DNA of 64,000 nt from the NCBI RefSeq assembly GCF_020623625.1, contig NC_060202.1, forward strand, positions 638,501 to 702,500. The letters run 5' to 3'. This DNA comes from Saccharomycodes ludwigii (Eukaryota; Ascomycota; Saccharomycetes; Saccharomycodales; Saccharomycodaceae). The notes beneath the pieces were generated by a model. It was given only the letters and a program-made list of their open reading frames with translations, was not told where the DNA came from and ran no database searches. Shown here piece after piece: positions 1-28,531 of this stretch; the first letter of the stretch is position 1, and every line of letters begins with the position of its first letter. A program made the position numbers and the translations under genes.

Positions 1-450
1 AGATATATTTAGTCTCCTTTTTAGAGTCCAAAAATTAAAAATAGCACATACAAGTGTGACATCATTCCATGACTCTTGCTATTCTTGTCCCCGTCCCCCT
101 CCCCCCATTTTCTGTTTTATTTAAACTTCTTATCCGCTTTTTACACAAAACCTTGATACGTACCATTAATTTTATTATTACTACAGCTATGACCACGAAA
201 TCGGCTTATTAAACGTATTTTCAAGATAAAATATGATTTTGTGGAAACTGCTACTATAGTTTATTTCCCGTCTTTTCACTCTATAATTACTGTACGCCTG
301 GCTCATTTTTAGACTCCGTTATTTTATATTTTTAATAGCATATTATGTTCCTCCAGACAACTACTTATCTCCGGTAAATGTTTTTTATGTAGTCCTAAGT
401 AAAAAAAAAAATATTGCATCGCACTTTTACGTAAGATTCCCCTTTTCCAC

Positions 451-474
451 GTTCGTGTTCGTGTTCGTGTTCGG
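451..474. repeat. Hexamer repeat GTTCGT, four units
   Basis: Four consecutive copies of GTTCGT, the last ending in GG, stand out as a comparatively GC-rich island in AT-rich spacer. Function is unknown. It lies in the gene-free candidate centromere flank. Confidence 0.8.
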
Positions 475-496
475 CTTTTAACTTCTAATTTCCAGT

Positions 497-541
<45 letters not shown>

Positions 542-542
<1 letters not shown>

Positions 543-583
543 AGATCACCTGTAATGTTAGAATATTTATAATGGGTGATCTA
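542..583. repeat. Inverted repeat with 9-bp arms
   Basis: TAGATCACC (542-550) is mirrored by GGTGATCTA (575-583) around a 24-bp AT-rich spacer. The left arm runs into ATCACCTG, one base away from the CDEI consensus RTCACRTG. A TA repeat (500-538) lies directly to the left. It may be a protein-binding dyad; no function is shown. Confidence 0.6.
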
Positions 584-1084
584 TATTCTTCGTAAAATAG
601 TACAACTGGCACAACCTAGCTTGTATATTATTTATACGAATCATTTGAATTATACGTAGAGATGATCGAAAGCAAAACATATAATAATAATAATAACATC
701 CGCGCATATCTTTAAGCAAGAGAATCTAAAAAAAAAAAAATTGCTTTACCACATTATAGTTACTAAAAACGTGAATTCTCTTCTCAATTCGTTGCGAAAA
801 TAATTGGCACTGAATCAAAACTTAATCAAGGCTATATTATATTTAAAAATATAAACAAAGTAACTGTGTAAGAAATAAATATGTAGGTGTATATCAAAAA
901 CTCATTTTCAAAAAATTGAACATAACAATTTATTCGCATTATTTCATTTCCAGATGTGATGAATCTTTTATTTTTATTACTATTTGAGTTATATAGTTAG
1001 ATAAAGCGTCCAGCTTACAACATATTAACATTTTTTGCTAACAAACTAAAGAAAACATTACCGCATGCTGACCAACTTGTTAAC

Positions 1085-1383
1085 TATTGGCAAAAAAAAA
1101 AAAATATATAAACGTACAGGCGTCTTTTTATTTGTTTATTTAATTATTTAATATATATATATATATATATATTCTTCGCTTTTAATCCTTGCACAACTTA
1201 TGTTTAACTCTCCTAGTTTTTATACTTACTCATGTAATAATACTGACTTCAGCAATAAATAAAATATAAATGAAGCTTCTATAAATAATCTACAAAAAAA
1301 ATAGTGTGTAGATTCATATTAACAGATATTTTACATAATATGAATAATTCTATTAAATAGTTAGATGAGTTATTTGTTTAAAA
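1085..1383 (+). mobile_element. Solo LTR, Ty5-like, old and degraded
   Basis: This region aligns along its length with the better preserved LTR at 1609-1852. It shares the 5' block with a GTAC-centred motif after an A-rich start, and the 3' block containing CATATTAACAG and a following ATG. It is longer than its relatives because of expanded A and TA runs. Ends are eroded and no clear target duplication remains. It is a fossil without internal coding region, among the oldest copies of the cluster. The boundaries are approximate. Confidence 0.7.
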
Positions 1384-1443
1384 TAATCAAATCACACGAG
1401 GTACAATAATTATGTAGAAAAACACCCATACGTTTCATACAGC
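1384..1443 (-). mobile_element. Possible LTR 5' fragment, Ty5-like
   Basis: Read on the minus strand this short stretch resembles the first ~45 bases of the LTRs nearby (GTATGGGTG motif followed by a T-rich run and CTA). It abuts the neighbouring LTR at its right and an older one at its left. It is probably the remnant of another copy cut off by later insertions. The match is short, so this is a weak call. Confidence 0.35.
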
Positions 1444-1449
1444 ATAACC

Positions 1450-1912
1450 TGTTGATCGAATAGCTGATGCAACATATCAAAAGTGTTATTCATATTATAT
1501 AATATACCTGTTAATATAAATATATTACCTTGGTCTCTTTCACCTATGTAGGAAGTCCTGCTATATAACTTAAATAATGTTGTGTTATATAACGAAGCAA
1601 GCATATGATGTTGAAAAAATAAATGTACGGGTGTGTATTTATTTTCTATCTGCCTGTTCATCATATGCATGGTTGCTTTCAGATATTATCTTGCCTTATA
1701 TAATACTACATTAATTAAGTTATACGTGATTTATATATAAGAAGTCCCTTTTACAAAAGCTAAAAGAGACTAAGGTGTATATTCATATTAACAGGTATAT
1801 TACATAATATGGATCATTCTGTTGATCGGTTAGATCAGCTATTCGCTCAACATATGATACACAGAAATAAAAAAAAAAAAAAAAAAACATCCGTACATTT
1901 ATCATCTCAATA
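1450..1912 (-). mobile_element. Solo LTR, Ty5-like, interrupted by a second LTR
   Basis: On the minus strand this is a full LTR of about 214 bp once the insert is left out. It is flanked by the 5-bp target duplication TAACC (1445-1449 and 1913-1917). A second LTR (1609-1852) sits inside it. The outer end at 1450 begins TGTTGA, the terminus typical of Ty1/copia elements of the Ty5 type. The intact duplication says that this is a genuine insertion event and that the internal part was lost by LTR-LTR recombination. It is older than the element nested in it. Confidence 0.88.
1609..1852 (+). mobile_element. Solo LTR, Ty5-like, nested, youngest copy
   Basis: This is a 244-bp LTR beginning TGTTGA and ending TCAACA, a perfect terminal inverted pair. 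It is flanked by the 5-bp target duplication TATGA (1604-1608 and 1853-1857), which lies inside the older minus-strand LTR. The family is Ty1/copia; termini, length and 5-bp duplication fit Ty5 best. An ATG at 1809 opens a short reading frame that runs to and through the LTR end, matching the known habit of Ty1/copia Gag to start inside the LTR. No internal region follows, so it is a solo LTR. Its intact ends and duplication suggest the most recent insertion in the cluster. Confidence 0.92.
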
Positions 1913-2198
1913 TAACCCACATTAAAAATCTTTAAGATAAACTTTTTATTTGTGTTCGCAAAATATTTATTATAAAATATATTATAAAACAGTAAATGTA
2001 ACTTGTTTTATTTTAATAAAAATTATTCTATATAGAATTTAAACAATTATTTTTAAATTTCATAAGTAACTATAATTTATTTATTATTATTAATTTAAAA
2101 TACTCTTTATTAATAATATTTTAAAATATTAAAAGTAGATATGCGAAAACAAAATCAGTGTTTATAACTATTATATAATAGAATATATTTATTTTTAT

Positions 2199-2441
2199 TG
2201 TTGAGGAAAATAAATACACACGCCGTACATTTATTATCTACCTTGTCTTTTCATCATATACTTCTTATTGCATAAATCTTATTTTTAATTATATAGAACA
2301 ACATTATTTAAGTTATAGGCAGGCTATCTAAAAGGTCTCTTAACTTAAGCAAAAACGACGATTGTATATATGCATATTAACAGGTACCTTTCGTAATATG
2401 AGAAATTCTATTGATCTGTTAGATGAGCTATTTGCGGAACA
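2199..2441 (+). mobile_element. Solo LTR, Ty5-like
   Basis: This 243-bp copy starts TGTTGA and aligns from end to end with the LTR at 1609-1852, including the TACATTTAT block near the 5' end and the CATATTAACAGGTA block followed by an ATG at the 3' end. The 3' terminus is somewhat eroded and no clear target duplication is visible. It is a solo LTR of intermediate age. Confidence 0.85.
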
Positions 2442-2526
2442 ATATATAGTTGAAAACACTAATTTTTATAAAAAATTCTTTATATTAAACATAAAGGCTT
2501 ATAACTATATCTATTTTCCCAATTAA

Positions 2527-2722
2527 ACTTGAACAAATAACTGCTCTAAGTATTCAATAGAATGGTTCATAGAATGTAATATATCCGTTAATATAAATTT
2601 TTACATTTTTTAGGGGTCATTTACTTTTTATATACTCTAAATAAATGGTGTTCCATACAAGTAAAATTAAGACTAAGAATGGGCAGATATGTAACACATA
2701 CCAGTAAAAAAAGAAAATAATC
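2527..2722 (-). mobile_element. Solo LTR relic, Ty5-like, old
   Basis: On the minus strand the 3' third matches the family well (ATATTAAC block, ATG, then a peptide frame like the other copies). The 5' part is only loosely alignable through an ATCTGCC block. No target duplication is seen. The right boundary is approximate. It is an old fossil with no internal region. Confidence 0.65.
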
Positions 2723-3452
2723 TTATCTCTTTTTTTTTCTTTAACATTTAATTGTTCTCTTTTGCTTTTACTTTCATTTTTCTAATAACATTCAATTTTA
2801 GTACAATATGGGTGATATGACTATTTATGCAATAAGATATAAAGCTAAAGTATAGGAATATATTGCTAGACACAGGACATGATCTTAAAACTCCAATTGA
2901 TTTTTCCAATTTATTATTCAATTAAAAAACAAAAAAAAAAATAAAAAAAAGTAAAAGTTTTTATTTTGTACAGTATTTTAAATAATTGTTTAATTTTTAT
3001 AGCTTTTTGCTGGCATTTAGTTTTAAAACGAAATTATGTACAACATAGATTATATTTTTTTTTTTTTATATGTCATTTATAAGTTTTATAGGTTTTACTT
3101 GATATTCTAAAAATAATATATGTTTATAGCAAGAAGTATATTACATATTACCAAGAAATTATTATTAGATGTATAGATTATGTTTTTGTTCGGGAATAAT
3201 TTTGCGCCCTTTTTTATTGATAAATATGGAAGAGACATAAAGTTATACTTTTTTTTTACCTTTTTTGTTTTTTTTTTTTTTTTTTTTTTTTTTCTTTCTT
3301 TCCCTTAGTGCAGTTTTACATTAAATTATAACTTTATATCTTTAAAAATTTTAAAAAGAAAATTTATTTGTATCTTTATAAAAAAGAAGATAGAAAAACA
3401 AGAAACGAAGAAAAAATATAAACCTTTGCAACTTTTGTTAATATTTATAAGG

Positions 3453-3977
3453 ATGGCTAAGATTAATTGTTTGGCAGATGTTTGCATGGTACCAGTATGT
3501 TGGAACAGATTTTTGATATCTTTTGGACCACATTTGCTTAAAAAAAAGAGGTAACACTCTAAAGCATTTAATATTATTACTAACTTTATTAGCGTATGTA
3601 TGTTTTCTAGTACTAGTAATAACAATTTAATTATCCTCCGTCTTATGTTGTTATTGTTTGTGTTAGAATGCATTTTTGTGATTATTTGTACACAGGTTGG
3701 TACTGGAAGTGCATCTATTTCAGACTATGTTGCTAAAATAGAAGCAAAGATACGTGAAAGTCCTTTGAAAAGTACTTTGCACAGTGCTGGGACCACGATT
3801 GAGGGACCATGGGATGAAGTCATGGGTCTAATTGGTGAATTACATGAATATGCGCATGGCAGCTTGGGATTAGTTAGGATTCACACTGATATTAGAGTTG
3901 GTACAAGAACCGACAAAGCTCAGACTGCGCAAGATAAAGTTAATGTTGTTTTAAAGAAAATCGCAGATCCTAAATAA
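3453..3977 (+). CDS. ECM15: Ecm15-like thiamine-binding-fold protein, two exons
   Basis: Exon 1 is 3453-3494 (14 codons) and exon 2 is 3696-3977, giving a 107-residue protein. The family member in S. cerevisiae has 104 residues. Ecm15 belongs to the small MTH1187/YkoF-like thiamine-binding-fold family; its cell role is poorly known, with a non-essential cell-wall phenotype. Exon 1 encodes [14 protein letters not shown], which is the family's conserved N-terminus and is missing from the longer single frame that opens at 3600. Exon 2 carries [23 protein letters not shown] and the [15 protein letters not shown] block. The intron (3495-3695, 201 bp) begins GTATGT, has TACTAAC at 3578-3584 and ends CACAG. 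The S. cerevisiae gene is intronless as far as I know. It is the CEN2-adjacent gene there and lies beside the LTR cluster here. Confidence 0.9.
3495..3695 (+). other. Spliceosomal intron of ECM15
   Basis: The donor GTATGT follows codon 14, the branch site TACTAAC is at 3578-3584 and the acceptor CAG ends at 3695. Removing it joins two parts that match the Ecm15 family without gap. Earlier AG dinucleotides (3591-3592, 3609-3610) would shift the frame, so homology picks the last acceptor. Confidence 0.88.
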
Positions 3978-4565: not shown

Positions 4566-4940
4566 TTAAGATTGGGTAGAAGAAGAATATTTAGTAACAG
4601 ATCTAGTACCTTCAGAAACAGCATGCTTGGCTAATTCACCTGGCAAAATCAACCTAACAGCTGTTTGAATTTCTCTAGCAGAAATGGTAGACTTCTTGTT
4701 GTAAGCAGCTAATTTGGAAGCTTCAGTGGCGATTCTTTCAAAAATATCGTTGACAAAGGAATTTAAAATAGACATTGATTTTTGAGAGATACCAGTATCT
4801 GGGTGAGTTTGTTTTAAAACTTTGTAAATGTAAGAGGAGTAAGTTTCCTTTCTAACCTTGTGTCTCTTCTTGGATGGTTCAGAAGTAGAGGCAGTTTTCT
4901 TAGCTGGTGCTTTTGAGGCAGGTTTCTTAGAGGCAGACAT
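4566..4940 (-). CDS. HTB2: Histone H2B
   Basis: This is the core nucleosome histone that pairs with H2A. At 124 residues it is close to the yeast norm of 131. A basic lysine/alanine/proline tail (1-30) with acetylatable lysines is followed by the H2B histone fold from [19 protein letters not shown] (34-52) to the C-terminal helix. The C-terminus [18 protein letters not shown] carries the lysine that corresponds to yeast K123, the target of Rad6-Bre1 monoubiquitylation. It is divergently transcribed from HTA over a 924-bp shared promoter, as in S. cerevisiae HTA2-HTB2. The neighbours (ECM15, UTP20) make HTB2 (YBL002W) the positional match. In this window there is a single pair. Confidence 0.98.
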
Positions 4941-5864
4941 TTTTGTGCGTTAGTTGTTGTGTTAGTTTTATATATATAGATATAGATAGATATATGCTTT
5001 TTTTTTTTTTTTTTTATTTTTTATTTTTCCTTTCCCTTCTTTATTTTATATCAAATAGTACTAATGGTGAAACTGAGAACGTTGTTACAAAAAAAAAACC
5101 TATATCTTAACCAAGTTAAAATGTAGGACACCCTTTAGAATAGATTTATATAGTAATTAAGATAGGAGTAAGTAATGATAAAGACAATATTTATTTATTT
5201 ATTTTTTTTTAATTAATTTACTTTCTTATATATGGATATAATTTCTATGAAATCATTACTTGAATCGTTCAAATAGCTATAATTAATAATAACAAGCAAC
5301 TAAAATATTCTGATAGTTAATTGACGTGCGTGTGCGTGTTTTTTTTTTTATTTTATTTTATTTTATTTTATTTTTTTTTTTTTTTTTTGAATTAACAATT
5401 ACGCGTCACAATAGGTGTTCTGAAAGATACGCAGGATAAACGTTTTTATTTGGACGTTAACAACCTTTAATAGAGTACTTTTCAGAATGGACAATTTTTT
5501 TCATCACTAATCGAAAAAGTATGGGAATAAAGGGAGAAAAAAAAATAAAAAATAAAAAAGCTTTTTTTTTTTTTTGGTTAACGTGTCACATTTACATATA
5601 TTATCATCGATTATACGTATTTTGTGTCTGCGAATCTTTTGGATTAACATGTGAAATTCTCAGAACAACGCACCCTTGATTTAAAAGATGCCTAGAAAGA
5701 AAAAAAAAAAAAAAAAAGGAACAAATACACACCTAGACATATACACGCACACACATATATATATATAACTAGCTTTTCTTATCGTTTTGAAATTTGCAAC
5801 ATAAATAAAGAAAATTGAATAACGTACCTAAATAAATAGAAAAAAGAAGAAAAACAATATAAAG
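4941..5864. promoter_or_regulatory. Divergent histone promoter with repeated Spt10-type boxes
   Basis: Five related elements fit the histone UAS pattern (A/G)TTCC-N6-TTCNC, allowing small changes. They are GTTCTGAAAGATACGC (5417-5432, plus), and on the minus strand 5473-5488, 5630-5645, 5651-5666 and a shorter one at 5067-5080. The element at 5651-5666 reads GTTCTGAGAATTTCAC and the one at 5630-5645 reads AATCCAAAAGATTCGC. An MluI cell-cycle box ACGCGT lies at 5401-5406, and ACG(C/T)GTCACA occurs twice (5401, 5581). In S. cerevisiae such boxes bind Spt10 and drive S-phase histone expression. The assignment here is by pattern. Long T runs and TA repeats fill the rest. Confidence 0.65.
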
Positions 5865-6260
5865 ATGTCAGGCGGTAAAGGTGGTAAAGCAGGTTCTACA
5901 GCTAAAGCTTCTCAATCTAGATCAGCTAGAGCTGGTTTAACTTTCCCAGTTGGTAGAATTCATAGATTATTAAGAAAAGGTAATTATGCTCAAAGAATTG
6001 GTTCTGGTGCTCCAGTCTACTTGACTTCAGTTTTGGAGTATTTGACCGCCGAAATTTTAGAATTAGCTGGTAACGCTGCTAGAGATAACAAAAAAACAAG
6101 AATCATTCCTAGACATTTACAATTAGCCATTAGAAATGACGACGAGTTGAACAAATTGTTAGGTAATGTCACTATTGCTCAAGGTGGTGTTTTACCAAAT
6201 ATTCATCAAAACTTGTTACCAAAGAAATCCAAACCTTCTAAGGCCTCTCAAGAATTATAG
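5865..6260 (+). CDS. HTA2: Histone H2A
   Basis: This is the core histone partner of H2B, 131 residues. The N-terminal tail [10 protein letters not shown] is followed by the diagnostic [20 protein letters not shown] (43% basic/hydrophobic start of the histone fold), the acidic patch [20 protein letters not shown] and [22 protein letters not shown]. The last residues SQEL form the Mec1/Tel1 target (gamma-H2A serine 129 in yeast). It matches yeast H2A almost throughout, with no intron. It shares its promoter with HTB and faces RMD1 tail to tail. Confidence 0.98.
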
Positions 6261-6581
6261 AAGAAAAAAAAAGAAAAAGAAAAAAAAGGAAAAAAAAAAC
6301 AACAGTTTAGTATAGAATACATTTTTTTCATCTGAAAATTATTTTTAACTAAAAAATGTTTAGGGAAACATATCTATATGGTTGTTTGCATGTGTCTGTC
6401 CGTATCAGTTATATAATTTAAATGAGTATACTATTTGTGTTTTAGAATTAATTTTTATTTTTATTTTTTGTATAATAGTTTAAATTTTATCGAGCCCGTT
6501 GTCAAAAAACATATATATATATATATATAGGTGTGTGCTGTCATTACCCGTTTTATCATTATTTAAAACATAAGTATTCCC
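6261..6581. other. Convergent 3' intergenic, HTA and RMD1
   Basis: The spacer starts with an A/G-rich run directly after the HTA stop and has a TA repeat at 6511-6528. No gene is seen. Confidence 0.6.
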
Positions 6582-7886
6582 TTATAAATCTGCTATTATA
6601 TCAACAATTATATTTACCACGGATACCAACACTTCGACGCCGACCAAAACAATTACTATAAATTCCAAATATTCTTCATTACTATGGCCCAACTGCTCTT
6701 TTAACATCTGCAATAAATCGGAAATGACTTCCAATCTTTGGTTAAGTAGGCTTATTCTTTGATTTATTTCCAAGTAACCTCTTGTAGCTTGATAAATCGG
6801 TTCCAAATGTGGTTCTGCCCACATAAGTTCGGGCGAATCCATCACAGAACCATGCAAGTTAATGTTTATCCTCAAAATGAATAGCTCTCCAATACTTTTC
6901 ATAATTTCTTCCTTGGTCATTGATATTTTACCTACAGACGCGATTTGTTGAGGAATATCTTGCGTATCTTCAATAGTATTATCTACTAATTCCTCAAACA
7001 AAGATATTTTTACACTTTGGGCAATAGCATGTGAAATAGATAATTTTACTAGATAATTTGATCCATCTTTCAAAGTGATAAAATCGTTGTAAATTCTCGG
7101 CTGATAACTTTGCGTTATGTAATAATTAAATTCTTCAACCTGGACGTCTTCTTCAGCCAATTTCTCTCTCTCAAAGCTATCCAAATCGTTTAAAAATGCT
7201 TTCTCTTCACGTTCAGTGAACCCCCACATTACAATAACACCATATTCAAAGATAAATAAATCAGGCTGTTTATCACTAACAATGATCTCTCCGCCCTCGT
7301 CGTCCAATCGTATTATATCTTGGTGAACAAATCTCTTATCCGCTCTCCAATCTTTATATTTAAATGGAGTATATAAACATTCATCAAATAGTTTTGGACG
7401 CGTGTGGTACAATTTCTTACAATCTTTTAACCATTTGAGTAATTCTTTTATGTTGTAACTACTAGCAGTACAATATGCTGTGACTCTTGGTAACAAATGT
7501 CTTTGATTTTTTCCTAATTTCTCTGCGTCTCTTCTTGCATGTTTGTCTGTGATATGATTGACTTGTGAGTAAACATCTTTATCCTGGGATGTCAAAGCTT
7601 GGCCTTTAGTAGAACTGAATGGTTCTTCCGGTAATAATTTTAATTTCTGAGTTGTTCTTGAAGTTCTTTGTGGGCCCATTTTAGAAATATGCTTATTTGT
7701 TAGTTTTTTGTTATTTTTGTCATTTGGAGATTTTAATTTTGTTTCGTGTTCAGATATTGTATTATTTACGTACTTGGAAACAGTATTATTGGAAGAAACC
7801 GTAGCTTGTACGGTGCCATTATTTTTTAAAAGAGGCTCTTCTTCTTCTTCTTCTTCATCATGTTGACACGGTAGATTTGAACTCAT
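6582..7886 (-). CDS. RMD1: Rmd1-like DUF155 protein
   Basis: This 434-residue protein matches S. cerevisiae Rmd1 (430). Residues 1-130 are polar and low complexity, with an acidic EEEEEEE run near residue 12 and a conserved QRTSRTTQKLKLLPEEPF segment. The DUF155/RMND1 domain runs from about 135 (YCTASSYNIKELLKWL) to 400, including the typical FEYGVIVMWGFTEREEKAFL and AEPHLEPIYQATRGYLEINQRI blocks. A hydrophobic C-terminal segment (about 404-432) looks like a tail anchor. Family members in mitochondria support translation; yeast Rmd1 is cytosolic/membrane linked and was found through sporulation. The biochemical role is unknown. Its relative borders CEN4 in S. cerevisiae, which matters for the left end of the window. 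Confidence 0.9.
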   Translation of the reverse strand: MSSNLPCQHDEEEEEEEPLLKNNGTVQATVSSNNTVSKYVNNTISEHETKLKSPNDKNNKKLTNKHISKMGPQRTSRTTQKLKLLPEEPFSSTKGQALTSQDKDVYSQVNHITDKHARRDAEKLGKNQRHLLPRVTAYCTASSYNIKELLKWLKDCKKLYHTRPKLFDECLYTPFKYKDWRADKRFVHQDIIRLDDEGGEIIVSDKQPDLFIFEYGVIVMWGFTEREEKAFLNDLDSFEREKLAEEDVQVEEFNYYITQSYQPRIYNDFITLKDGSNYLVKLSISHAIAQSVKISLFEELVDNTIEDTQDIPQQIASVGKISMTKEEIMKSIGELFILRININLHGSVMDSPELMWAEPHLEPIYQATRGYLEINQRISLLNQRLEVISDLLQMLKEQLGHSNEEYLEFIVIVLVGVEVLVSVVNIIVDIIADL

Positions 7887-22066: not shown

Positions 22067-23176
22067 TCTCTGGTATTTATTTATGAGTATTTAACTTTTT
22101 CTTTTTTTCTTTCCTTTTTTTTTTAAAAAAAAAAAAAATTAACTAAATAAATAAATAACTTATATGTATAAATTTAATTATATCTATTATGCTATTAACT
22201 CATCAGCTCTATTCGGGTTTTAAATATTTATGTTTATATTCTTGAAAAAATAAATTTGCAAGTGCTTTGTTTTTCCCTATTGAATTAGTATACATCCTGT
22301 GCTTGATTATTTTCGTTCTCATCTTTACTATCTATAATAACATTTAATTAGGACTATATAATTAATATAAATGGCCTCATTACATAAGCTGTGGAGACTA
22401 AGGCGTAGATTTATATTGACAGGTATACTACATAATATGAATAATTCTATCAACCCACTAGACCAGCCATTTGCTTAATACATATTAATTTCATATTATT
22501 TTGCTATGAAAAAGAGACAAATTGAAGTCTTTGTTTTGAACACAAAATATCTGTTAATATGATGAAAACTGCGAATTTTTTTTTTTTTCTTTTTTGTTTT
22601 TTTCCCGCACCAAGTTACTTTGTTGAAGTAGTGCACGGTTTATGGATTCACTTGTAGAGGTGTCGCGGTTCTTCCATCATTCATTCATCTCCCCCCCCCC
22701 CTTCTGGCTCTTATATAAAACACTACTATCTATATGTATTTTGTGTGTCACACAACTTTCCTTTAGAGAGTATAATTAAGCTAATAGTTGATATTGTATA
22801 CTATGTAAAATGCAACTTAAAATCACGATGTAATTTTTTTTTTTTGTACCATATTATATTAGTTACCGTTTTAAAAAAGAGACAAAAATAAAAAATAAAA
22901 TAAAAATAAAAAATAAAATTAAAATGAGAAAATAAGATCAAAGCGTATATCCATAATTACTTCAGTAATTCTCTAGTAAAAGACAGAGAAGGGGATTAAA
23001 AACTACAAATTAGATTAAAAGTATTAATTAGAATTTTATTGCAGCAATAATAATATTATATATGTATCTAAGCAAAAAAAAAAAAAAAAAGGAATAAAAT
23101 AAAAGAAATAGAATAAAAGAAATAATATATATATATATGTTAAAGCTTGGCTGTGTTAAAGATTATTTTTTTTGTC

Positions 23177-23201: not shown

Positions 23202-23207
<6 letters not shown>

Positions 23208-25310
23208 GTTACCTTTGATAGCGTCAATATGGGACTCCTGCAAATATTTTAGTCTATCCTTGATGTATGTACACATTTTATCGTATTTTTCAGTATTAAC
23301 CACAGGTTCTAGGTATTTGAACTTTAATAAAATACCATATTTATTATCACTATCCTTAGGAGGATCACCACATAGAATTTTGGCATAATTTCTATATATC
23401 TCCAATTCTAAATCATGTTTTTGTAAAATTTCAGTTCTCCTATAAGTTCTAACATGCTTGCCAGAATAAATTAAATCTTGTTGTTCACTTAAAAGCAATG
23501 GATCAAATTTAGGATGGTTAGAATGGACAAACAACACGTCAATGTTTGGCTTTCCGGCTACGTCAAAGTATTCTTCATAGAAGCTTTGAATATGGCCTTT
23601 GTAATTAGGATCTGGCTTCATTTCCGTACTGACGGCTGTTGCGCCGTATTTTTTTAAAATAGACTCTTGGGCAAGTTTGTATCTAGCATAATCTTGAACC
23701 ATGTCATACTGTAGCATAGCAACACCTCTGAAACCAGATTCATCAGGCGCATGAAAACCATCAACTTTGATCATTGATTTAACCTGGTAAAATGGATATT
23801 TATAATAGTTAGCGGCAGCCAAAAATGTTTCTTTGTCACCTTCACCTTGCGATTTTTGTGTGAAAATAGGGTAATACCAGCTTGGTCCATTAACGTTATA
23901 ATACAAGGATAACAAAGTTGTGGCTAGTTGATCAACCTTATTAATCATTAACTGACCACTTTCAGTTGATGGATCCGGAATAGTACCTTCCAAGTCATGT
24001 AACGGCACGTCCTTATTATCAGAACCTGTATCTTGATAAACCCAAGGTGGCGTTATATCATCAATGCAATTCCTAACTCTTTTGTTTAAGTTGATATCAA
24101 TATCGGCAATGTCGTAATACAATGGCGTAGTAGATCTTCTCCAGAAATCCGGCCACACAACCAAACCGGTAGATTTATAGGGCTCTTTATCAAATATATC
24201 ATCTAGCGATTTTAGGGGTAAGTTGTCAGCATCTAGCAACAATAAGTTGGCAAAACTGGAGGCACTAATAGCCAAGGATTTGAATTGATAACCTTTGAAT
24301 TCAAAAGAATCGATGATGTCCTGTGGTAGGAAATCACGGAAATAAATGCACTTGGCATTTAAATTGCTCTCGATATATTGGCAAAAATCATCATCACCTT
24401 CGTCACTGTGAGGTATTAAAACTTCAACTGGTAAAGTGGTTCCTGTATTCCGTAACGTTTCAATTAGTGTGTAGGCTAATAGGGAAAATTTACCGCCACC
24501 AACAGTCACAATACCATTGCCTTGATAAGCCTGTTTACCCAGGACCACACCGCTAATACTATTGACAAAGGCTGCATGTTTTTCTTTCAAGTCGTTTAAA
24601 GTCTCTTCTGGTATTATTAAACAGTTTCTCAACGAATCGTAGCTTAACGTTTCCCAATTTTCAAAGTTATCATAGCCAACATCACCACGTAGCGGACAGT
24701 TGTCATGATATTTTCTGTCTAATTTACCAGCAGGAGAGTATTTAGTGATGCTTTCGAATATCTTACGATAAAAGTCATGCAATAGTTTAGTTCTAGTTTC
24801 AGTATCCAATAAATTTTGTTCACCGGTCCCTTTGTCTCCCTTAGTGGAATCCGTAGCAATATCAGCCGCCAATTTAACACTATTATCCAGTGGGACATGC
24901 TGTAACTCTTCTGGTGCGATTCTCAAATGAGATGCCGCTGCACCATTTTCATCGTTGTTCTTTAATAATGAATCTTCTTCCTCATCATCTAACAATTTGT
25001 TTCTATAATTGCTGACGTAATCTGACAATGTTTGTTGGTAAGCTAGAGGTTCGTTTTTACCCTGGTCATCTGTTTTATAATAGTTGTTACTGATATAATC
25101 AATTGGATTGAAGTTTAATATATCATTAAAATCAAAACCCAGCATTAGGTTATTGTTGCTATTCTGGACGTTTACACCAGTACTATTATCGTTTTGTATG
25201 GTAAAATTGTTTAGGACTGCATTTACAATGAAGAATACGATGGAGATGATCAACCCAAAAATCACGAGTTTTTTAAAAGTTCTTCTATAAAATGGACGTA
25301 ATAATAGCAT
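23202..25310 (-). CDS. MNN2/MNN5-type alpha-1,2-mannosyltransferase, copy A
   Basis: This is a type II Golgi membrane enzyme that adds alpha-1,2-mannose branches to the outer chain of N-glycans. It has 702 residues (Mnn2 and Mnn5 are near 590). A short cytosolic tail RPFYRRTFKK is followed by a membrane anchor (about 14-33), a stem with poor conservation to about 170, and the catalytic domain. The nucleotide-sugar/Mn2+ motif DAD is at 360-362 within LLLLDADN, and WPDFWRR at 386-392. GGGKFS at 271-276 and GEGDKETF (about 475) are family blocks. It is divergent from copy B across an 857-bp promoter. Copy C at 47846-49810 is its closest relative in the window. MNN2 (YBR015C) is a candidate by chromosome II linkage with YPK3 and CDS1. 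Confidence 0.9.
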
Positions 25311-25507
25311 GCTCTTTGGGTATTGGGCTGTTATTATTATATTTCTGTTGATGGTTTGCTTAACAAGCTTTTTGTTTTAAAAAAAAAAAATTTTTTTTTT
25401 TTTTCCTTTGATTCAGAGGGAAATGATGGTGAGAAATATAAAGAGGACGAAAATAGAAAATAAAAAGTTAAAATGGAAACATCAAAAACCCATCAACCGG
25501 TACTTGA

Positions 25508-25539
<32 letters not shown>

Positions 25540-26167
25540 ACGTAGAAAAAAAGACGAAGAGAAAGCAAAGACCGAACAAAGAAAAGACCGAACAAAAAGC
25601 GAGCAAAGAACAAGAAAAAAAAAAAGCAAAAGAAGGCTTATTTTTTTTTTTTTTTTCTCTTTTTTTCACTAAAAATAAAACTATTTTTAAAATTGTAAAT
25701 GCTATTTTCCGCATTGGTTACTAATAATATATCAGCTATGCGTGGATGTCTAAGGAGTAGGTGAGAATGGGCGAAAGAAAAACTAATAAATTTTTTTTTT
25801 TTTTTTCCCTTTTATCACATCTTTTTATTAAATTTGTCAAAAAATCAAAATAAAATAAAATAAAAAAAAAAAAAAAAAACACAATGTTATTTCTCATTAC
25901 TTTTCTTTTTTTACTCCTTTAATTCTTTATCTTCTATCCCAAGCTTTCTCTTTCCCTCTTTTTTTTCTCTTGGATTTTGTTAAAAAAGTTACCTTGTCAG
26001 ATGGTCTATCTCATTTGAAGATCAAAAAAAAAAGAAATTTACTCCACTCCTAGAATATTTATTTGCTTATTTACCTGTCACTGACCTACAAAATTCAAAA
26101 GAAGTGGTCTTAAAAATACATTCCAAAATATCCAGTTTCTCTTTAATAAAACCCCAAAAAAAAAAAA
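25311..26167. promoter_or_regulatory. Divergent promoter between two mannosyltransferase genes
   Basis: The region contains T27 (25508-25534), A and T runs at 25381-25404 and 25640-25656, and a direct repeat of AAAGACCGAACAAA about 18 bp apart (25568 and 25586). No known factor site is recognised. Confidence 0.5.
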
Positions 26168-28531
26168 ATGAGAAACATTTTACAGTTGTTCAGGAGACAG
26201 ATCAACAAACTAGCAAATAATAGCAGATTTGCTATCAGCAATAAAAGAAAAATATGGTACACCGGTACAATTACCATTTTACTGATACTAATCATTACGT
26301 TGATCCTGCTTCCCTTAACCAATTCTACAACTATTAATACAAAAAACTACACTGGCACCCAGTTATTAAATAATAACCATCACACTGAACATACCAATGA
26401 AAACCTTTCTACTGGAAGTGAAGATGATGAGTTGTTAGCCAATCTACCCGAAGGTTATAGTATCAAACCAATTTCCGAAACATCAACCGCTGCTGAGACA
26501 ACAATCGACAACGAATCCGGTGGCTACGTTAGCAAATTTCAGCCTGGCTTAGAAGACGTCGGAACCACCGACGATACTATTAACGGTGGGGGTACTATCA
26601 AGAAAGTTGAAATTAGAACCACTTTCCCTGCAGAAGTCAAAAAGTTTATAATAGAGATTTTCGAAAATATTAGGGATTATTCTCCATCTTCTTCATTCAA
26701 AGTGGAAATGGATAACTCCAATCCTAACTGTAAAGTTAAGGATGTTTCCTTCCATGATTATGAAAGCGTGAATAAGTTTCTAACCAAGGAAGTTTTGTCC
26801 AAAGGTTGCTTAAAGCCAATATCAACAAAAGACCTGGGTGTGTTGCAAACATTGCATGGAAATCTTAAAAAAATTATCAAAGATTACTTGCTAAAAAAAT
26901 ACAAGCTTTTAGTTGAAGATAAAGTTATTACGTATAACAAATTGGATAATACTGAATCGGGTATTGTTATTATGGCTGGTGGTAAATATTCCTTGACAGC
27001 TTTGGGTGTCTTAAAGTCTATTAGGGAAAACTCAGGTTTGAAAACTAGAAACTCTGTTCCTGTGGAGATTTTTTTCCCGCCAGATATTGACGATGACCAA
27101 GCCATCAAATTTTGTACGGAAATTATTCCAAAAGTTGACAATACTGGATTGACTTCGTGTACTTTAATGTCTAGACTATTGCCAGAATCTGAGGATCCAA
27201 CCAAGACCATCAAAAACATACAGGGATACCAATACAAGGCGATGTCCATACTATTTTCCAAATTCCAAAAAGTGTTATTTTTAGACGCAGATAATTATGT
27301 TGTGAACCCAATAGATGGATGGTTTAATAATATAATTTTTGAGAGAAGCGGGTTGATCTTGTGGCCTGATTTTTGGCGTAGGGTTCATCATCCATGGTTC
27401 TACACCATAACCGGCCTAAATGTTGATGAAAACAGGAGGGTCAGGTTCGCCAGTGACCATCTAATTTCTCCAGAAATATTGAAAAATCTAGACGGCCCTG
27501 TCCCATATCACGATTACAGTGGTACTATACCTGATTTATCTAGCGAATCTGGCCAATTGTTAATCGATAAGAATATGCATATGGACACTTTGATATTAAG
27601 TCTTTATTACAATATTAATGGTCCGAACGTTTTCTATCCCCTATTAGGACAAGGAGGTGCGGGTCAAGGTGATAAAGATACATTTGCTGCAGCAGCCTTT
27701 AATTTTCACGGTCTAAACAAGATGTATCAAGTTCGTGGCACTCCTAGAGCTATTGGGTACCACTGTGATAAGAACGAAGTGTCTATTGAGGACTTGAAGA
27801 ATAGCGCAGGGCTGGGTGAGGGCGCTTGGTCTTTTAGAGGAGTGGGTATTTTACAATCAGATTTTACTGAAGACTATAAGATCGAACAAGCTACCAAGAT
27901 GGCTATTCAAGGTGGATTAAGGGATGCATTGAGGAGGTATCTAGAAGATTGGGGTAACAAGCATAACGATGAATTACCTGGGCCTAAAGGCGGCAAAGAG
28001 TGGTGGGCTGCTTTGGAGTCGAAGGATAAAGTCAAACAAGAATTTTATAAGTCAGTGTCAAAGAATTATAGCTTAAAAGACTTCCTTATAGAATACGATT
28101 TATCTCCAAAAGTGTTTGTTCATTCTAATTTGCCCAAATTAAATCCATTAGAAATGGGTTTCCAAGAAGATATGGTCTATAACGGCAAGAAATTCAAAGG
28201 TAGAGAGGGTTTTACTAAATCACCAATGGCTAAATTTACCGGGCATTTTAGAATGTATGAACTTGAACAGATGAAGAGTATGACTAATTATGATTTGGAA
28301 TTAGCTACATTCAAATTGTACAACGATGTCTTGTGCACAGAAGATGAAAAAATAAACGATGTTACTGGTACCCCTGAATTAGCGTTGTGGAAAATCCCTT
28401 ATTTATATGATAAGTTCACTAATGACGAGGAATTGAAAGAGGGCAATTTTGGACCAGATAAGATGTGTTTATACATTAAAGACAGATATACTTATTTGAA
28501 AAAGAGTACATGGGAGTCTAGTAGATACTAG
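26168..28531 (+). CDS. MNN2/MNN5-type mannosyltransferase, divergent copy B
   Basis: A 787-residue type II membrane protein. The cytosolic tail is long and basic (1-30), the anchor lies at about 31-50, and the acidic/threonine-rich stem reaches about 145. The catalytic part has GGKYSL (271-276), LFLDADNYV with DAD at 373-375, and WPDFWRR (399-405). It differs from copies A and C by insertions: one of about 50 residues rich in charge around 590-640 and another before the C-terminus. It may be a functionally distinct branch enzyme. It could equally be orthologous to MNN5 or to a non-S. cerevisiae member; a tree is needed to tell. Confidence 0.88.
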   Translation: MRNILQLFRRQINKLANNSRFAISNKRKIWYTGTITILLILIITLILLPLTNSTTINTKNYTGTQLLNNNHHTEHTNENLSTGSEDDELLANLPEGYSIKPISETSTAAETTIDNESGGYVSKFQPGLEDVGTTDDTINGGGTIKKVEIRTTFPAEVKKFIIEIFENIRDYSPSSSFKVEMDNSNPNCKVKDVSFHDYESVNKFLTKEVLSKGCLKPISTKDLGVLQTLHGNLKKIIKDYLLKKYKLLVEDKVITYNKLDNTESGIVIMAGGKYSLTALGVLKSIRENSGLKTRNSVPVEIFFPPDIDDDQAIKFCTEIIPKVDNTGLTSCTLMSRLLPESEDPTKTIKNIQGYQYKAMSILFSKFQKVLFLDADNYVVNPIDGWFNNIIFERSGLILWPDFWRRVHHPWFYTITGLNVDENRRVRFASDHLISPEILKNLDGPVPYHDYSGTIPDLSSESGQLLIDKNMHMDTLILSLYYNINGPNVFYPLLGQGGAGQGDKDTFAAAAFNFHGLNKMYQVRGTPRAIGYHCDKNEVSIEDLKNSAGLGEGAWSFRGVGILQSDFTEDYKIEQATKMAIQGGLRDALRRYLEDWGNKHNDELPGPKGGKEWWAALESKDKVKQEFYKSVSKNYSLKDFLIEYDLSPKVFVHSNLPKLNPLEMGFQEDMVYNGKKFKGREGFTKSPMAKFTGHFRMYELEQMKSMTNYDLELATFKLYNDVLCTEDEKINDVTGTPELALWKIPYLYDKFTNDEELKEGNFGPDKMCLYIKDRYTYLKKSTWESSRY

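What the first reader, a model, noticed from the sequence alone, without database searches (positions are those of the whole stretch)
1..3452. Gene-free LTR pile at the place of the ancestral centromere
ECM15 and RMD1 are the genes beside CEN2 and CEN4 in S. cerevisiae. Both lie here within 8 kb, beside a gene-free, AT-rich stretch packed with at least five nested Ty5-like LTRs. In a lineage without the genome duplication the ancestral centromere should fall exactly here. No standard CDEI-CDEII-CDEIII point centromere is obvious, so the centromere could be of another type, perhaps built on LTR sequence. I recall reports linking Ty5-type elements with centromeres in this yeast order but cannot check them here. 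The seen parts are LTRs and gene order; the centromere is inference.
Basis: partly seen in the sequence, partly recalled or inferred. Interest (0 to 1): 0.88.

Follow-up and report, generated by a model that had tools for sequence, protein, structure and literature searches.

The report
Twin-box yeast centromere ringed by retrotransposons
The gene-free stretch holds what looks like this chromosome's centromere: a short element of two matching DNA boxes facing each other across about 180 bases of nearly pure A and T, with a counterpart on each of the seven chromosomes, hemmed in by retrotransposon scars that come close to it but do not break it.

Summary
Window 1-3452 is gene-free and carries five Ty5-type LTRs (one nested), against one clear and one doubtful in the other 60 kb. 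The held genome fits Saccharomycodes ludwigii (inferred). LTR searches place the family at one cluster on each of C2-C7 plus five stray sites; C1's faded copies appeared only by local comparison. Each of the seven clusters holds one compact element: two inverted copies of a 21-bp box (majority TGCGAACACAAATTTTGTGTT) around 175-187 bp of 90-93% AT; here 1940-2162. The exact pair pattern occurs at six places genome-wide, one each on C2-C7 (reversed control 0); C1's copy, one base off, lies between RRP6 and PHO80. Recognised neighbours are genes beside S. cerevisiae centromeres (mostly recalled). Cep3 and Ndc10 are encoded. So the place is right, but the centromere looks sequence-defined, not LTR-built: six of seven elements are no more LTR-like than shuffles (C4 borderline), and none contains LTR matches. 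Putative point centromeres in this species and Ty5-centromere links are published; the paper most likely to overlap could not be read. Twin-box anatomy and box-like sequences beside two of five stray insertions may be new. No binding or segregation data.

The parts
1940..1960 (-). left 21-bp box (hexamer TTCGCA at 1955-1960)
   Evidence: one of 14 arms sharing the box; rank 2 among 21-mers in 87 kb of held C3 DNA with a matrix from the other six chromosomes
1961..2141 (.). AT-rich core (CDEII-like), 181 bp, 91.7% AT
2142..2162 (+). right 21-bp box TGCGAAAACAAAATCAGTGTT
   Evidence: rank 1 in the same scan; only window match with up to 3 mismatches, 0.10 expected
1940..2162 (.). whole twin-box element: candidate point centromere of this chromosome
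   Evidence: only TTCGCA-N165-195-TGCGAA pair in the window, 0.07 expected, 7 of 100 shuffles have one; counterparts on the other six chromosomes
1150..1385 (+). old Ty5-type LTR
1450..1913 (-). Ty5-type LTR split by the next one; its 5' end lies 42 bp from the left hexamer
1609..1852 (+). solo LTR with TGTTGA...TCAACA ends and TATGA target duplication (1604-1608, 1853-1857)
   Evidence: sequence; 92% to the best copies elsewhere
2199..2441 (+). Ty5-type LTR; 5' end 52 bp from the right hexamer
2529..2746 (-). degraded Ty5-type LTR
3452..3977 (+). ECM15-like gene (Thiamine_BP), probably with one intron
   Evidence: for the domain in 3600-3977; first part and intron inferred from sequence; name recalled
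4566..7886 (.). histone H2B (-), histone H2A (+), DUF155/RMD1-like (-)
   Evidence: their place beside CEN2/CEN4 of S. cerevisiae is recalled

Best explanation
Window 1940-2162 is the sequence-defined (point-type) centromere of this chromosome. Two inverted 21-bp boxes are bound by the CBF3 complex (Cep3 zinc cluster and Ndc10). The 181-bp AT-rich stretch between them carries the Cse4 nucleosome on which the kinetochore forms. Ty5-type retrotransposons integrate beside this complex, leaving LTRs that begin 42 bp or more outside the hexamers; insertions that would break the element are absent, because bound protein shields it or because they are lethal. Shown here: the element, a counterpart on each of the seven chromosomes, the LTR ring, the Cep3 and Ndc10 genes. 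Inferred: Cse4 on the core, CBF3 on the boxes, and integration steered by the centromere complex.
For: GTTCGCA-N165-195-TGCGAANNNAAA: 7 matches at 6 places in 12.5 Mb, one place each on C2-C7; reversed-pattern control 0. The C1 element has one changed base in a hexamer and lies between RRP6 and PHO80. Leave-one-chromosome-out: 13 of 14 arms rank first or second in the held 7-87 kb of their own chromosome, the other third. With the full matrix the arms score 19.3-28.5 and no other site in 158 kb exceeds 15.3. Spacing 175-187 bp, AT 90.0-93.4% against 70-80% in 200-bp flanks. Neighbours: trehalase and RanBP1 (C3), DOM34 and CDC10 (C4), dynamin/VPS1-like (C5, one side), BTB/ankyrin, TRAP-alpha and RRM genes (C7), RRP6 and PHO80 (C1), HAT_KAT11 (C6, one side). 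Cep3 with zinc cluster, and Ndc10. LTR bases inside elements 0 of 7, with 20-81% in 600-bp flanks.
Against: No binding, Hi-C or segregation data. In S. cerevisiae the CCG side of CDEIII points away from the AT-rich part (recalled); here the CGC side points toward it, and CDEI/CDEIII matches at the element are missing, so CBF3 binding to these boxes is an assumption. In the leave-one-out scan the C1 right arm (14.5) is outscored by a non-centromeric site on C1 (16.4). C2's neighbours were named only by eye, C6's left neighbour has no Pfam match and its right neighbour no solved relative. The element was found inside LTR clusters, so the two signals are not independent in discovery; no unbiased motif discovery was run. 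Box matches with up to 2 mismatches are mostly chance (23 against 20 for the reversed control).
Confidence: 0.85

Rival explanations
1. The centromere is LTR-made or LTR-derived: the LTR cluster itself, or an LTR worn down into the twin-box element, recruits Cse4 (the co-option hypothesis for point centromeres).
For: LTRs of one family lie within 200 bp of 13 of 14 element sides; the element (217-229 bp) is close to the LTR (about 244 bp) in length; Haase et al. propose an LTR origin (seen only as cited in PMC12711049 and PMC12925627).
Against: Element-LTR scores do not exceed dinucleotide shuffles in 6 of 7 elements (18-39 of 40 shuffles reach them; C4: 3 of 40). LTR copy, orientation and number differ between centromeres while the boxes are constant. 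An ancient LTR origin could be beyond detection.
Confidence: 0.1
2. Epigenetic small regional centromere in gene-free DNA, with LTRs and boxes as passengers.
For: Gene-free gap of about 3.9 kb; H. menglaensis centromeres, in the same order, look featureless (PMC12711049 section 10).
Against: A pair of boxes at 175-187 bp spacing on 7 of 7 chromosomes is not expected of a passenger; Cep3 and Ndc10 are retained.
Confidence: 0.05
3. The twin-box element is another conserved feature near the centromere (a replication origin or Ty5 landing platform), with the kinetochore seated next to it.
For: LTR ends crowd around it, and arm-like boxes lie beside two of five stray Ty5-type insertions.
Against: It has a counterpart on each chromosome in the LTR clusters at centromere-gene sites. 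The one other candidate tested, the string at window 3181, is not shared; but no unbiased search for a second shared feature was made.
Confidence: 0.05

Closest known systems
S. cerevisiae-type point centromere (CDEI-CDEII-CDEIII, CBF3)
   Same: short, sequence-defined, AT-rich middle, one per chromosome, ancestral gene neighbourhood, Cep3 and Ndc10 encoded
   Different: no CDEI at the element and no CDEIII match above chance; both ends carry the same box in inverted orientation; middle about twice as long as the roughly 80 bp of S. cerevisiae (recalled)
Hanseniaspora uvarum centromere-associated motif (CAM; proto-point centromere)
   Same: same order; a 21-bp motif with dyad character and CGCA; ancestral locations (PMC12711049)
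   Different: that motif holds two AACGCA 5 nt apart; here a 21-bp box with a single TTCGCA occurs twice, about 181 bp apart
Ty5-type clusters at centromeres of Cyberlindnera sargentensis, Wickerhamomyces canadensis and W. anomalus
   Same: Ty5-type elements and LTRs at centromeres; as in W. anomalus, a sequence motif distinct from the LTRs (passages)
   Different: box sequence and twin arrangement; another taxonomic order
Putative point centromeres of Saccharomycodes ludwigii (Papaioannou et al. 2021, PMC8567612)
   Same: probably the same loci: matching genome size and chromosome number, located by synteny and DNA motif on all chromosomes (passages)
   Different: their motif is in a supplementary figure that could not be read; a term search of the main text found no 'CDE', 'LTR', 'Ty5' or 'retrotransposon'
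Naumovozyma unconventional point centromeres
   Same: point architecture with changed CDE sequences (passages)
   Different: different motifs and origin as described there

Membership tests
Point centromere (general) | one short conserved element per chromosome | tested here: met
   7 of 7 chromosomes; uniqueness on C1 rests on the 21-bp box search
Point centromere (general) | AT-rich core of near-constant length | tested here: met
   175-187 bp, 90.0-93.4% AT
Point centromere (general) | located at ancestral centromere gene neighbourhood | tested here: met
   C1, C3, C4 and C7 by domain or solved-structure names on both sides; C5 and C6 on one side only; C2 by eye only. DOM34 at Anc_CEN1 and ECM15 at Anc_CEN3 are from PMC12711049; the other S. 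cerevisiae positions are recalled
Point centromere (general) | CBF3 subunits encoded | tested here: met
   Cep3 E 6.4e-93 with Zn_clus; Ndc10 E 2.2e-48. Ctf13 not tested
Point centromere (general) | Cse4 nucleosome on the element | not testable with these tools
   needs ChIP
Conventional CDEI-CDEII-CDEIII centromere | CDEI RTCACRTG at one end | tested here: not met
   0 of 7 elements with 80-bp flanks, best 2 mismatches or more; one exact CDEI in the C6 gap, about 6 kb from its element
Conventional CDEI-CDEII-CDEIII centromere | CDEIII consensus at the other end | tested here: not met
   best matches in the gaps have 4-6 mismatches; 34 of 60 shuffles of the C3 gap reach 4 or fewer (consensus recalled)
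H. uvarum CAM | two AACGCA as an inverted repeat 5 nt apart | tested here: not met
   each of the 14 boxes holds one TTCGCA-type hexamer; the gaps were not searched for the CAM itself
Ty5 family (the flanking LTRs) | PBS complementary to initiator tRNA-Met anticodon stem | tested here: met
   14-base complement in four Ty5 copies and in a tRNA-Met(CAT) gene; that this tRNA is the initiator was not tested
Ty5 family (the flanking LTRs) | Ty5-type Gag and copia-type reverse transcriptase | tested here: met
   PF17241, PF07727 on pieces of the C1 copy
LTR-derived centromere | element similar to LTR | tested here: not met
   no excess over shuffles in 6 of 7; C4 borderline; ancient origin not excluded

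The most novel reading that the evidence does not exclude
The 21-bp box is the docking signal for Ty5-type integration as well as for the kinetochore: the box-binding complex (CBF3) tethers the Ty5 integrase, so insertions land some 40-100 bp outside a box. Even a single decayed box far from any centromere can draw an insertion, as at C1:2239670 (83 bp from a recent Ty5) and window 22535 (56 bp from a stray LTR). Retrotransposon and centromere would then be linked by a shared protein rather than by descent of one from the other.
Probability: 0.3. Interest if true: 0.82.

Novelty: new variant of a known kind. Interest (0 to 1): 0.62.

Why it matters
Saccharomycodales is the order next to the S. 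cerevisiae order, so its centromeres bear on how point centromeres arose. A symmetric twin-box centromere in a genome with Cep3 and Ndc10, without a recognisable CDEI or CDEIII, is a possible intermediate or alternative form. LTRs that surround but do not resemble the element favour 'retrotransposons are drawn to centromeres' over 'centromeres are made of retrotransposons' in this species, and the stray-box pattern offers a direct test of how the drawing works.

Tried and rejected
A CDEIII-like string at window 3181 was my first candidate; its 26 bases occur once in the genome and nothing like it is shared by the other clusters, so it was dropped. The C1 LTRs at 2,234-2,240 kb were first taken for a centromere cluster; they belong to a Ty5-sized insertion about 40 kb from the C1 element. 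The HAT1 region (C1:1313 kb) was checked as a C1 centromere site: reading the hexamer fragments by eye, no pair in 13.45 kb. L029, a stray LTR site on C1, has none either.

Results against the stray-box idea: 3 of 5 stray LTR sites have no box nearby. Of 16 non-centromeric box matches with up to 2 mismatches, 1 has a clear LTR within 150 bp; in the other 15, two weak LTR-like hits lie 190 and 263 bp away. The link was noticed after the fact, the two boxes lack the CG of the hexamer and face opposite ways relative to the insertion, and the random placements were drawn from a small pool of held DNA. Haase et al. (10.1038/s41586-025-10092-0) was not held, so overlap with it cannot be judged. Gordon et al. 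2011 (PMC3141009) was looked at for flanking-gene names; its text held none of the five gene names asked for.
Full report
What was checked first. The window is C3:638501-702500 of a held genome of 12,500,424 bases in 8 contigs. Genome size, seven chromosome-sized contigs (792 kb to 3.08 Mb) and the window's low GC fit Saccharomycodes ludwigii NBRC 1722 (12.5 Mb, 7 chromosomal scaffolds, 30.9% GC; PMC8567612, passages seen). The name is inference; no tool states it. The described features are present: no ATG ORF of 100 aa or more wholly inside 1-3452, low GC, and five Ty5-type LTRs, one with clean ends and a 5-bp target duplication inserted in an older one. LTR-matching sequence covers 1235 of the first 3452 bases and 305 of the remaining 60,548.

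The neighbourhood. To the right come genes with domains of ECM15, H2B, H2A, RMD1, NHP10 and, further on, MCD1. To the left, outside the window, come neutral trehalase and a RanBP1 gene. These surround CEN2 and CEN4 in S. cerevisiae (recalled). The centromere of an unduplicated relative should lie between trehalase and ECM15, a gap of about 3.9 kb.

The LTR family over the genome. A search with one LTR gave 28 matches. They fall in one cluster each on C2 (496-503 kb), C3 (this window), C4 (820-824 kb), C5 (703 kb), C6 (601-607 kb) and C7 (404 kb), plus five stray sites: a Ty5-sized insertion at C1:2,234-2,240 kb, C1:1,502 kb, C2:514 kb, C3:660 kb and C3:1,808 kb. Two further LTR queries (19 and 24 matches) added no site. 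The tool scores only best candidates, so these are lower bounds; C1's faded centromeric LTRs were found only by local comparison.

The shared element. A scan of the gaps for the first candidate string failed but drew the eye to a recurrent TTCGCA. Listing such hexamers in C2-C7 showed a pair TTCGCA...TGCGAA at nearly constant spacing in all six. The pattern GTTCGCA-N165-195-TGCGAANNNAAA matches at six places in the genome, exactly these (seven matches, C6 on both strands), with none for the reversed control. The looser TTCGCA-N165-195-TGCGAA adds one stray place, C2:434297; its control has three places. A search for the right box with up to 2 mismatches gave 23 matches against 20 for the reversed control, so such matches are mostly chance; but all five with 0-1 mismatch lie in the clusters, and one with 2 pointed to C1:2,194,405. 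There the seventh element lies between RRP6 (E 8.7e-188) and PHO80 (E 5.5e-69), with one changed base in its right hexamer. The middle parts are 175-187 bp and 90.0-93.4% AT; the 200-bp flanks are 70-80% AT.

The boxes. Reading each arm from inside outward, 13 of 14 begin TGCGAA and one TGCGAC; the majority over 21 positions is TGCGAACACAAATTTTGTGTT, nearly a dyad AACACAAA-TTTGTGTT behind TGCG. With a matrix from the other six chromosomes, 13 of 14 arms rank first or second in the held DNA of their chromosome (7-87 kb); C1's right arm ranks third, behind the non-centromeric site C1:2239670. In 84 kb of C3 the element pair scores 37.9, the next unrelated pair 11.9. No exact CDEI occurs in any element with 80-bp flanks (one lies in the C6 gap, about 6 kb away) and no CDEIII match beats shuffles. 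The best CDEIII-like site in the C3 gap happens to overlap the right box with 4 mismatches, which is chance level; I claim no homology. No unbiased motif discovery was run.

Proteins. The genome encodes Cep3 with its zinc cluster (E 6.4e-93; aligned to CBF3 subunit B, E 6.2e-76) and Ndc10 (E 2.2e-48, Ndc10_N too; CBF3 subunit A, E 5.1e-68). A second, weaker NDC10_II match at C2:1812367 was not studied, and Ctf13 was not looked for. CBF3 binds CDEIII in S. cerevisiae (PMC12711049, passage), which supports a sequence-defined mechanism here.

Other neighbourhoods. C4: DOM34 and CDC10 on the two sides, Rer1 beyond. C5: dynamin/VPS1-like on one side. C6: HAT_KAT11 (E 7.4e-8) on one side, no Pfam match on the other and no solved relative. 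C7: BTB/ankyrin and TRAP-alpha on one side, RRM on the other. C2: read by eye only. Their places beside S. cerevisiae centromeres are mostly recalled.

LTRs and the element. LTR matches fill 20-81% of the 600-bp flanks but 0 bases of 7 elements. An LTR lies within 200 bp of 13 of 14 sides (none found on C6's left); the nearest are 42, 43, 48, 50, 52 and 64 bp from a hexamer, and in these six cases the LTR's own end faces the element; the others are 72-200 bp away. Ty5-sized copies on C1 and C6 have LTR pairs identical over 244 bp and 5-bp target duplications, so the family moved recently; the C6 copy starts 43 bp from the right hexamer. Their middles were not held, so whether they are intact was not tested. 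Elements do not resemble LTRs beyond shuffles in 6 of 7; C4 is borderline. The simplest reading is that Ty5 is drawn to the centromere and the centromere excludes it.

Stray insertions. Two of five stray sites have an arm-like box close by: 83 bp from the C1 Ty5 (score 15.2) and 56 bp from the LTR at window 22242-22478 (13.5). In 50,000 random placements in held DNA, away from elements and those two sites, none reached 13.5 (highest 13.0), though the pool is small. Both boxes lack the CG of the centromeric hexamer, their orientation relative to the insertion differs, three stray sites have nothing, and the reverse test is weak (1 of 16). I hold this as a lead.

What is known. Papaioannou et al. 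2021 state that synteny and motif analysis gave putative point centromeres on all S. ludwigii chromosomes (passages; supplementary figure not available). Hession et al. 2025 (PMC12711049; section 10 and passages) describe the H. uvarum 21-bp motif, Ty5-type clusters in other yeasts and conserved locations, and cite Haase et al. for an LTR-origin hypothesis. Helsen et al. 2025 (PMC12925627; passages) mention proto-point centromeres in Saccharomycodaceae. Haase et al. could not be read. Searches listed 6 of 6, 20 of 69, 20 of 160 and 3 of 3 papers; in those listings I saw no other title on S. ludwigii centromere structure, but most listed papers were not opened (PMC2694357, which holds both terms, among them). 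This does not show that the twin-box anatomy is unpublished.

Verdict. A centromere very probably lies here (about 0.93 by my judgement), at window 1940-2162. It looks like a sequence-defined centromere of an unconventional, symmetric form, not an LTR-built one.

Noticed in passing
window 22242-22478 and 22535-22555: Stray Ty5-type LTR (about 70% identity) 20 kb from the element, with an arm-like box TTTGAACACAAAATATCTGTT 56 bp beyond its end.
   Followed up: partly
C1:2234307-2239690 (L006, L009): Ty5-sized insertion with identical LTRs and a GAAAA target duplication, 40 kb from the C1 element, with an arm-like box 83 bp beyond its 3' end. Its middle was not held.
   Followed up: partly
C1:1306775-1320227 (L042, L039, L041): The HAT1 neighbourhood (S. 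cerevisiae CEN16 side, recalled) shows no twin-box element: a possible lost ancestral centromere, in line with seven chromosomes instead of eight.
   Followed up: partly
C2:1812367-1812696: Second, weaker NDC10_II match (E 1.7e-8) in a 1091-aa frame besides the main Ndc10 gene.
   Followed up: no
window 3452-3977: ECM15-like gene stays at the trehalase side of the ancestral site here, whereas it is reported near CEN2 in Hanseniaspora (PMC12711049, passage).
   Followed up: no
C5:706175-707251 (L035): A transporter-like reading frame spread over several frames beside the C5 element: possible pseudogene (by eye).
   Followed up: no
window 23202-28531: Two neighbouring genes of the Mannosyl_trans3 family in opposite orientation.
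   Followed up: no
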